From: an uncultured Alistipes sp.
Lineage (GTDB): Bacteria; Bacteroidota; Bacteroidia; Bacteroidales; Rikenellaceae
NCBI GenBank assembly: GCA_947623305.1
Contig: CANQGQ010000002.1
Coordinates: 186,001 to 250,000, forward strand
Length of the DNA: 64,000 nucleotides
Direction: 5' to 3'
A model generated the notes under the pieces. That model was not told the DNA's origin. It saw only the letters and a program-made list of their open reading frames with translations, and made no database searches. The translations under genes and the position numbers were made by a program. Below are positions 8,030 to 9,130 of the stretch, in pieces (within the stretch, counting starts at the first letter, position 1; each line of letters starts with the position of its first letter).

Positions 8030-9130
8030 ATGTTGCGCCATTTGATAGACCCAACCGACCTGACGGTCGATGAGACCGAGGCGATCGTCGCTTTGGCCGA
8101 ACGCATCATCGCTCATCGCGAGCAGTATCGCGAAGCCTGCAAAGGCAAGAAATTAGCCACACTGTTCTATGAACCGTCGACCCGTACGCGGTTGAGTTTC
8201 ACCTCGGCCATGCTGGAGTTGGGCGGGCAGGTCATCGGCTTTTCGGATGCCGCGTCGTCGTCGGTTTCGAAGGGCGAGACCGTCGCCGATACCGTGCGGG
8301 TCATCCGGTGCTTCGCCGACATCATCGCCATGCGCCATTTCAAGGAGGGGGCGCCGCTCGTCGCTTCGCAGTATGCCGGCATTCCGGTCATCAATGCCGG
8401 CGACGGCAGCCATGCCCATCCGACCCAGACGTTGACCGATCTGCTGACCATCAAGCGCGAAAAGGGACGCTTCGACCATCTGACCATCGGTTTCTGCGGC
8501 GATCTGAAGTTCGGACGCACGGTGCATTCGTTGATTAAGGCGCTGTCGCGATATGCGGGCGTTCACGTCATTCTGATTTCGCCCGAGGAGCTGCGCCTGC
8601 CCGACTACATGCTGCAGGAGATGCAGGCCAATTCGCGACTGACTTTCCGCGAAGTGCGCACGATGGAGGAGGTGATGCCCGAGCTGGACATCCTCTACAT
8701 GACGCGCGTACAGAAAGAGCGGTTCCTCGACGAGGAGGAGTTCGACCGCGTGAAGAACAGCTTCGTGCTCGATGCCGCAAAACTGAAGACGGCCAAACCG
8801 GATATGGTGATTCTTCATCCGCTGCCGCGCGTGAACGAAATCGCGCGCGAGGTAGACAATGATCCGCGGGCAGCCTACTTCCGACAGGTCGAAAACGGAA
8901 AGTTCGTGCGTATGGCGTTGATTCTGACCCTGCTCGAATGGGCCGACGGCAATCGCCCGTTCGACCGGACGCCGGTTTTCGACGAACCTTATCTCGTCAA
9001 CGAATTGAAATGCGCCAACCGTCGATGCATCTCTGCGACGGAGGATGTCGATCAGTTGTTCCGTCGCGGTGAGGACGGCATCTGCCGATGCGCCTATTGC
9101 GAAACGAAAGCGCCGTCGGATTGTCGATAA
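8030..9130 (+). CDS. pyrB: Aspartate carbamoyltransferase with PyrI-like zinc tail
   Basis: PyrB joins carbamoyl phosphate and aspartate. The start at 8030 gives 366 aa beginning MLRHLIDP, the family N-terminus; an in-frame ATG at 7994 would add 12 unlike residues. The carbamoyl-phosphate loop STRTR is at 50-54, with HPTQT and the HPLPRVNEI loop later, so the catalytic domain (about 1-312) is complete. About 54 more residues follow, with Cys328-x4-Cys333 and Cys354-x2-Cys357. The context 'CANRRCIS...CRCAYCE' resembles the zinc domain of the regulatory subunit PyrI ('CPNSNCIS...CKYCE' in E. coli). The nucleotide-binding half of PyrI is missing. No separate pyrI is in the window. Confidence 0.93.
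   Translation: MLRHLIDPTDLTVDETEAIVALAERIIAHREQYREACKGKKLATLFYEPSTRTRLSFTSAMLELGGQVIGFSDAASSSVSKGETVADTVRVIRCFADIIAMRHFKEGAPLVASQYAGIPVINAGDGSHAHPTQTLTDLLTIKREKGRFDHLTIGFCGDLKFGRTVHSLIKALSRYAGVHVILISPEELRLPDYMLQEMQANSRLTFREVRTMEEVMPELDILYMTRVQKERFLDEEEFDRVKNSFVLDAAKLKTAKPDMVILHPLPRVNEIAREVDNDPRAAYFRQVENGKFVRMALILTLLEWADGNRPFDRTPVFDEPYLVNELKCANRRCISATEDVDQLFRRGEDGICRCAYCETKAPSDCR

What the first reader, a model, noticed from the sequence alone, without database searches (positions are those of the whole stretch)
8981..9127. PyrB carries the zinc domain of PyrI without its nucleotide domain
After a complete catalytic chain (about 312 aa), PyrB continues about 54 residues with Cys-x4-Cys-x20-Cys-x2-Cys and the context CANRRCIS...CRCAYCE, close to the E. 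coli PyrI zinc domain (CPNSNCIS...KCKYCE). Known full fusions, as in Thermotoga, keep the allosteric domain; this one seems not to. In E. coli the zinc domain makes the contact between catalytic and regulatory chains, so here it may hold a trimer or hexamer together with no ATP/CTP control.
Basis: partly seen in the sequence, partly recalled or inferred. Interest (0 to 1): 0.72.

Follow-up and report, generated by a model that had tools for sequence, protein, structure and literature searches.

The report
Pyrimidine enzyme with captured zinc clip
In this Alistipes-like bacterium the first committed enzyme of pyrimidine synthesis carries, on its own tail, the zinc domain of its usual regulatory partner without that partner's nucleotide-sensing domain, a fusion that family trees indicate arose more than once in Clostridia and that likely clips the enzyme in an active state, which would free it from the usual feedback control.

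Summary
PyrB (window 8030-9130, 366 aa) is a complete catalytic chain plus a PyrI zinc domain (PF02748 over cut-off); the PyrI nucleotide domain (PF01948) has no match in the protein or in the 99.98%-complete genome. It is not a one-off: 169 of 250 family genomes match PF02748 but not PF01948, all in two genera. Among 159 sampled Bacteroidales genomes only those two genera have it in a PyrB-sized frame. The E. coli comparison misses the origin: this PyrB is clostridial (58-68% identity; 45-51% to Bacteroidales PyrB), in a nucleotide-synthesis block with a non-native PurL. The same zinc-only fusion occurs in Clostridia (4 of 64 PyrI_C-bearing genomes of a class sample); one clade of all fused is rejected (p-AU 0.0001). 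In 70 of 71 fused proteins the 240s loop lacks the motif that is near-invariant in unfused Clostridia, while r-Asn111 (70 of 71) and an acid at c-109 (69 of 71), an R-state contact pair in E. coli, are kept. Best reading: a zinc domain captured as an intramolecular clip on an uncontrolled trimer. Assembly, zinc and kinetics are untested.

The parts
8030..8944 (+). pyrB catalytic chain, residues 1-305 (CP and Asp domains)
   Evidence: Pfam OTCace_N and OTCace, TIGR00670 351 bits over cut-off 237
8345..8347 (+). Glu106 = E. coli c-Glu109, which bonds r-Asn111 in the R state (PMC6056424, passage)
   Evidence: alignment to E. coli numbering; E or D in 43 of 43 Alistipes-type fused, 26 of 28 clostridial fused
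8720..8749 (+). 240s loop RFLDEEEFDR (residues 231-240), where unfused Clostridia mostly have RFFNE-x-[DE]Y; Phe238 stands at E. coli Tyr240
8945..9010 (+). end of last helix and linker, residues 306-327, fast evolving
   Evidence: mean pairwise identity 0.21 over residues 305-326 in 43 relatives; dN/dS 0.28
9011..9103 (+). PyrI-type zinc domain, Cys328, Cys333, Cys354, Cys357 through Glu358
9017..9019 (+). Asn330 = E. coli r-Asn111
   Evidence: Asn in 42 of 43 Alistipes-type and 28 of 28 clostridial fused proteins
9104..9130 (+). C-terminal residues and stop codon
7200..7832 (+). pyrE, directly upstream; 64-77% identical to PyrE in the 23 clostridial loci that show one
9282..9749 (+). purE, directly downstream, where some clostridial operons have pyrI then purE
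   Evidence: TIGR01162; pyrF-pyrE-pyrB then purE in 3 of 78 clostridial loci
10869..14582 (+). purL of the TIGR01857 clade, unlike the family's native PurL
   Evidence: 1723.6 bits; best matches 25-31% identical in the ten searched genomes outside the fused lineage

Best explanation
The zinc domain of PyrI, joined to the end of PyrB by a fast-evolving linker, likely folds back on its own catalytic chain as a permanent clip that would keep the catalytic trimer stable and active, while the nucleotide-sensing domain has no match in the protein or in the genome. Shown by sequence: the architecture, the missing nucleotide domain, purifying selection on the zinc domain, clostridial kinship of the gene, and rejection of a single clade for all such fusions. 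Inferred: an in-frame deletion between neighbouring pyrB and pyrI (pyrB stop to the end of the PyrI nucleotide domain) made it, more than once; the zinc domain keeps the old contact to the catalytic chain (c-Glu109 with r-Asn111, an R-state bond in E. coli); with no regulatory dimer to hold two trimers together the clostridial 240s-loop motif was released from selection. The enzyme would then be a trimer with hyperbolic kinetics and no ATP/CTP response, and pathway control would lie elsewhere, for example at carbamoyl-phosphate synthase.
For:: zinc domain without nucleotide domain, in gene and genome, through two genera; dN/dS 0.115 in the zinc domain (catalytic 0.088, linker 0.284; 11 close relatives); scattered on the tree; all fused as one clade lowers lnL by 166, p-AU 0.0001; clostridial fused alone by 155, p-AU 0.0004; of 154 columns conserved in at least 85% of 134 unfused clostridial PyrB, only three depart in half or more of 28 clostridial fused proteins, all in the 240s loop (insert after 235, 236, 239), and the same three depart in 100, 100 and 88% of 43 Alistipes-type fused; six independent pairs, motif loss goes with fusion in 5.9 on average and never the other way (median p 0.031, range 0.031-0.063). 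Asn111 in 70 of 71 fused, 109 acidic in 69 of 71; the one tail-less Alistipes-type PyrB (L084) has Ala at 109; the residue at E. coli 106 is hydrophobic in 77 of 78 clostridial and 57 of 60 Bacteroidales PyrI, in 11 of 28 clostridial and 0 of 43 Alistipes-type fused: the side towards the lost domain (recalled) decays. (passages of PMC6056424): E239 or K164 mutants and Y240F shift E. coli ATCase to R; this PyrB has Phe at 240.
Against: No coordinates were available, so docking on the own chain is not shown; the AlphaFold model is one chain only (tail blocks pLDDT 82-87, linker 61, pTM 0.87). The 240s motif was picked after seeing the data; in the set fetched afterwards 48 of 57 read unfused rows are strictly intact and 9 are not, three of them RFVSE loops. 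Bacteroidales with separate PyrI have another loop (commonest RFSDPMEYER), and Alistipes-type loops keep Asp236 (41 of 43) and mostly Glu239 (33 of 43) as in E. coli, so a trimer-trimer contact is not excluded. Asn111Ala in E. coli also gives an R-state enzyme without allostery (PMC6056424), so that bond is not needed for R. L234 and L236 keep the tail but lack an acid at 109. One relative (G159) lives without the tail. Tree changes count gains or losses; their direction is inferred.
Confidence: 0.6

Rival explanations
1. The zinc domain acts in trans: it docks on a neighbouring chain or on the opposite trimer and so glues a closed trimer or a hexamer together without effectors.
For: The variable linker of about 20 residues is long enough to allow it; in the holoenzyme the zinc domain also lies near the opposite trimer (recalled); Alistipes-type loops keep Asp236 and mostly Glu239.
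Against: The 240s-loop motif that is near-invariant in Clostridia with separate PyrI is lost in 27 of 28 clostridial and 43 of 43 Alistipes-type fused proteins, as expected if trimers no longer meet.
Confidence: 0.17
2. The tail is a remnant without a present function: pyrI was cut back by chance in an acquired gene and the piece is drifting away.
For: One relative, G159 (97% complete), has a PyrB of 304 aa without a tail; G139 has a shortened domain; two metagenomic copies lack a zinc cysteine (P0078, P0110).
Against: All 43 tails read keep four cysteines; dN/dS 0.115, close to the catalytic part; the same piece was kept in fusions that do not form one clade.
Confidence: 0.12
3. Effector control survives: another, unlinked protein or a new site on the trimer senses nucleotides and the zinc domain relays it.
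For: Plant ATCase is a trimer inhibited by UMP (PMC7878868, start of abstract seen), so a trimer need not be uncontrolled.
Against: No PyrI nucleotide domain in the genome; the hydrophobic residue next to that domain is gone in 43 of 43.
Confidence: 0.08

Closest known systems
E. coli-type ATCase, PyrB6-PyrI6 dodecamer
   Same: catalytic chain 47-49% identical to E. coli PyrB over the aligned residues; zinc domain homologous
   Different: zinc domain on the catalytic chain; nucleotide domain and pyrI gene not found
Full PyrB-PyrI fusion (Thermotoga maritima type, NCBIfam PRK13376)
   Same: catalytic and regulatory parts in one chain
   Different: keeps the nucleotide domain and is allosteric (title of Chen 1998 seen in the reference list of PMC4581275); the window protein scores 134.4 of 800 bits
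Trimer-only ATCase (Bacillus subtilis type; third type in PMC4581275, passage)
   Same: no nucleotide domain; insensitive to effectors there, predicted so here
   Different: no zinc domain there (recalled)
Catalytic trimer plus the 70-residue zinc fragment of PyrI, a laboratory complex (Markby, Zhou and Schachman 1991; recalled, not found in the library)
   Same: catalytic chain with the zinc domain alone; recalled as a stable complex with changed activity
   Different: there a separate peptide bound in the test tube, here a natural covalent fusion

Membership tests
ATCase catalytic chain (TIGR00670) | whole-protein score over cut-off | tested here: met
   351.2 bits, cut-off 236.95
ATCase catalytic chain (TIGR00670) | RxQxER motif and Arg54, Arg105, His134, Arg167, Arg229, Gln231 | tested here: met
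   each invariant in 43 of 43 fused rows, the window's included
ATCase regulatory chain PyrI (TIGR00240) | zinc domain PF02748 | tested here: met
   37.9 bits, cut-off 23.4
ATCase regulatory chain PyrI (TIGR00240) | nucleotide domain PF01948 and full-length score | tested here: not met
   no PF01948; TIGR00240 19.6 bits, cut-off 148.55
Full PyrB-PyrI fusion (PRK13376) | score over cut-off, nucleotide domain between catalytic and zinc parts | tested here: not met
   134.4 bits, cut-off 800; no PF01948
PyrB-PyrI dodecamer (E. coli type) | separate complete pyrI gene in the genome | tested here: not met
   (0 matches; 7 of 14 control genomes ring)
PyrB-PyrI dodecamer (E. coli type) | quaternary structure of twelve chains | not testable with these tools
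   single-chain prediction only
Trimer-only ATCase | no part of PyrI in the protein | tested here: not met
   PF02748 present
Trimer-only ATCase | trimer, no effector response | not testable with these tools
   needs protein
PyrI zinc-domain fold | structural match to the PyrI zinc domain | tested here: inconclusive

The most novel reading that the evidence does not exclude
A further kind of bacterial ATCase, evolved several times over: each time the neighbouring pyrI lost its nucleotide domain, its zinc domain was captured on PyrB as a built-in clip that locks the trimer in the R state, the trimer-trimer 240s loop fell out of selection, and the finished unregulated enzyme was carried from Clostridia into the Alistipes ancestor inside a whole pyrimidine-purine block. 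Nature repeated, perhaps half a dozen times, the classical laboratory complex of catalytic trimer and zinc fragment.
Probability: 0.42. Interest if true: 0.82.

Novelty: new variant of a known kind. Interest (0 to 1): 0.7.

Why it matters
E. coli ATCase is the textbook allosteric enzyme. Here evolution took it apart along its domain line, apparently more than once, and kept the same piece, which suggests that the zinc domain is worth having on a catalytic chain without any effector site. That makes an old question testable in natural proteins: what does the zinc domain alone do to stability and to the T/R balance? The correlated loss of the 240s-loop motif points to residues that may matter only in the regulated holoenzyme. 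It would also mean that Alistipes-like bacteria control pyrimidine synthesis elsewhere than at this step.

Tried and rejected
Chance cysteines: rejected, see observation check. A hidden pyrI elsewhere: not found, PF01948 has no match in the genome. A simple deletion in the native Bacteroidales pyrBI operon: rejected as origin for this gene, since its catalytic part is clostridial in kind. My first reading that loss of E. coli r-Lys139 and r-Lys143 marks the fusion: dropped, because Clostridia with a separate PyrI have other residues there too; the comparison with Bacteroidales PyrI is confounded by descent. A clean rule '240s motif if and only if separate PyrI': not upheld, 9 exceptions in 57 read rows of the later set. 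Bacteroidales-type zinc words in PyrB-sized proteins: 4 candidates, none zinc-only. The phylum sample told little, as 2 of 198 genomes match PF02748 there. The whole-model fold searches list catalytic chains in their 50 rows and so do not test the tail.

Not done: a species tree of the family, so whether the four same-genus genomes with native pyrBI (G018, G140, G144, G154) are early branches or took it back is open; the donor was not found; zinc-only fusions outside Bacteroidota and Clostridia were not searched; recombination of tails between genes was not tested. Rows left out before counts: duplicates (L001, L040, L047, L048, L054), partial or broken rows (L032, L038, L077, L085, L089), paralogues (L090, L091, L092); L194; of the 43 zinc-only PyrB fusions by Pfam columns, 24 were used in the trees and counts, the rest being near-copies or fragments. 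In the class sample three short PF02748 frames (G754, G641 and a second one in G616) were not resolved. The clostridial loci were picked by likeness to a complete PyrI, which favours unfused genes.

Full report
Observation. The ORF at 8030-9130 encodes 366 residues. Residues 3-300 match the two ATCase catalytic domains and 326-361 match PyrI_C at 37.9 bits, over the cut-off of 23.4; no match to the PyrI nucleotide domain. The genome, 99.98% complete, has no PF01948 match, while 7 of 14 control genomes ring. A second PF02748 hit in the genome stays under the cut-off in a 45-aa frame.

Spread in the family. In 250 genomes of the family PF02748 matches 232 and PF01948 matches 64 (no new handles appeared, so I take it that the same genomes were searched). 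Of the 64, 63 are among the 232 (G071, at a contig edge, is not). So 169 of 250 match the zinc domain without the nucleotide domain; all lie in genera g1 (the window's) and g36. Not every match row was printed; the fused rows that were have open frames mostly of 357-403 aa, most separate PyrI 152-275. The best protein hits that bear a name are called Alistipes by their sources. Four g1 genomes, G018, G140, G144 and G154, have a PyrB of 304 aa and a PyrI. In an even sample of 159 Bacteroidales genomes 148 match PF02748, and only G000 and G059, the members of these two genera, have it in a PyrB-sized frame; the other 146 have frames of 86-211 aa. Of 35 genomes searched by handle, 6 had no PyrB match, 2 (G214, G136) only a weak paralogue-like one, and G159 had a PyrB of 304 aa without tail.

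Descent. The catalytic part differs from 33 unfused Bacteroidales PyrB at many fixed positions. It is 58-68% identical to PyrB of 78 clostridial loci and 45-51% to full-length Bacteroidales PyrB, its own family included. In the clostridial loci, picked by likeness to a complete PyrI, PyrB is 303-326 aa and unfused in all 78. Three of 78 show pyrF-pyrE-pyrB with purE downstream, the order of the window, with pyrI in the place of the tail; PyrE is 64-77% identical in 23 loci and PyrF 64-75% in 22. PurL of the window belongs to the TIGR01857 clade (1723.6 bits). Of 30 genomes searched, the 20 of the fused lineage (the tail-less G159 included) have PurL 67-100% identical to it; the best matches in the 10 others, the four native-pyrBI genomes among them, are 25-31%. 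So a whole nucleotide block was probably gained together; this is inference from a few genes and the order.

The same fusion in Clostridia. A search for the clostridial zinc domain in PyrB-sized proteins gave 99 hits; 43 have catalytic-chain and PyrI_C domains and no PF01948 in the Pfam column, most about 360 aa, five of them named Ruminococcaceae or Clostridia bacterium; nine others have catalytic-chain domains together with PF01948 (sequences). In an even sample of 162 genomes of a clostridial class, 64 match PF02748 and 4 (G626, G712, G689, G751) are zinc-only fusions by sequence.

Number of origins. On a tree of catalytic parts (88 rows) the Alistipes-type fused form one clade (97/97), placed among the clostridial rows with modest support (84/90); a quick tree had it beside them. 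The clostridial fused need 7 changes of label, 7 forced by supported branches. With four more fused genomes and without the 240s loop, fused against unfused needs 12 changes, and supported branches force 6 among the clostridial fused. One clade of all fused costs 166 log units (p-AU 0.0001), one clade of clostridial fused 155 (p-AU 0.0004). CF_L236 is a long branch whose place is unsure. Changes may be gains or losses; I read them as repeated loss of the nucleotide domain, since regaining it is less simple. Exchange of tails between genes was not tested.

What changed with the fusion. Of 154 columns that are at least 85% conserved in 134 unfused clostridial PyrB, three depart in half or more of 28 clostridial fused: the insert after E. 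coli 235, 236 and 239. The same three depart in 100, 100 and 88% of 43 Alistipes-type fused. All lie in the 240s loop, which reads RFFNE-x-[DE]Y in 78 of 78 unfused rows of the first set. In a second set fetched after the motif was seen (60 stretches, 58 with PyrB), 48 of 57 readable rows are intact; one row (L245) has the same catalytic stretch as L129 of the first set. Six independent pairs go with the motif loss in 5.9 cases on average and against it in none (median p 0.031, range 0.031-0.063), with the warning that the motif was chosen on these data. The next tier, 25-50% departing, includes position 165. Titles of solved structures name an E. coli A241C disulfide-linked C6 enzyme and Y165F, K164E/E239K and K244N mutants. 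PMC6056424 (passages) says that E239 or K164 mutants sit in the R state without allostery, that Y240F shifts to R, and that r-Asn111 bonds c-Glu109 in the R state. The window has Phe at 240, as 24 of 43 Alistipes-type do. Asn111 is kept in 70 of 71 fused; residue 109 is Glu or Asp in 69 of 71. The tail-less G159 has Ala at 109, one case only. The residue at E. coli 106, which as I recall faces the nucleotide domain, is hydrophobic in 77 of 78 clostridial PyrI (the odd row looks misread) and 57 of 60 Bacteroidales PyrI, in 11 of 28 clostridial fused and in 0 of 43 Alistipes-type fused.

Against this reading. Alistipes-type loops resemble those of Bacteroidales with separate PyrI in keeping Asp236 (41 of 43), and 33 of 43 keep Glu239, so the lost motif is a clostridial one and not the E. 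coli residue pair itself. Nothing shows that the zinc domain docks on its own chain. E. coli Asn111Ala also loses allostery and shifts to R.

Mechanism. I commit to the clip: an in-frame deletion joins PyrB to the zinc domain of the next gene; the domain sits where it sat before, on the CP domain around residue 106, now with a tether; the trimer gains stability and stays R-like; there is no partner for effector control. Shown: architecture, no match to the sensor, selection on the domain, no single clade of fusions, decay on the side recalled to face the sensor and in the 240s loop, kept Asn111 and mostly an acid at 109. Inferred: deletion route, direction of change, docking, trimer, kinetics.

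Known or not. NCBI-sourced names for such proteins are simply aspartate carbamoyltransferase. Seven searches of the held open-licence library (listings and starts of abstracts read) showed no title or abstract on a zinc-only PyrB fusion; subscription journals are not covered. The review PMC4581275 (passages) lists prokaryotic dodecamers with DHOase, dodecamers with separate or fused regulatory parts, and trimers without, not this type. I rate it a new variant of a known kind.

Noticed in passing
window about 350-21000, carA-carB-pyrK-pyrD-pyrF-pyrE-pyrB-purE-purK-purL-purC-purF-purM-purN-purH-purD: One long nucleotide-synthesis block, with clostridial kinship in at least pyrB, pyrE and pyrF and a PurL of another clade than in the rest of the family. 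carA, pyrK, pyrD, pyrF, purC, purM, purN and purD are named by eye.
   Followed up: partly
G018, G140, G144, G154 (same genus): These four have Bacteroidales-type pyrB and pyrI and a PurL unlike the window's; early branches or reversals, not resolved.
   Followed up: partly
L084 (G159:C6:19235-20122): Alistipes-type PyrB of 304 aa that lacks the tail, with Ala at the Glu109 position; no zinc-domain remnant seen in the next 240 bases of that strand.
   Followed up: partly
G003:C57:89489-89806: A second, partial copy of the end of the fused pyrB (105-aa frame) about 2 kb from the complete one.
   Followed up: no
G002, G171, G228, G240, G243, G256 (same genus): No PyrB match at all; possible pyrimidine auxotrophs or assembly gaps.
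   Followed up: no
P0133, P0175, P0182, P0201 (Clostridia-type), P0124 (Bacteroidales-type): Full PyrB-PyrI fusions that keep the nucleotide domain; P0133 lies among the zinc-only fusions in the tree and may show an intermediate step.
   Followed up: partly
L236 (G751:C7): A very divergent clostridial zinc-only fusion with Pro at 109 and a branch of 1.28.
   Followed up: no
window about 36700-54300: Reads like a cobalamin-synthesis region with two TonB-type receptors; named by eye only.
   Followed up: no
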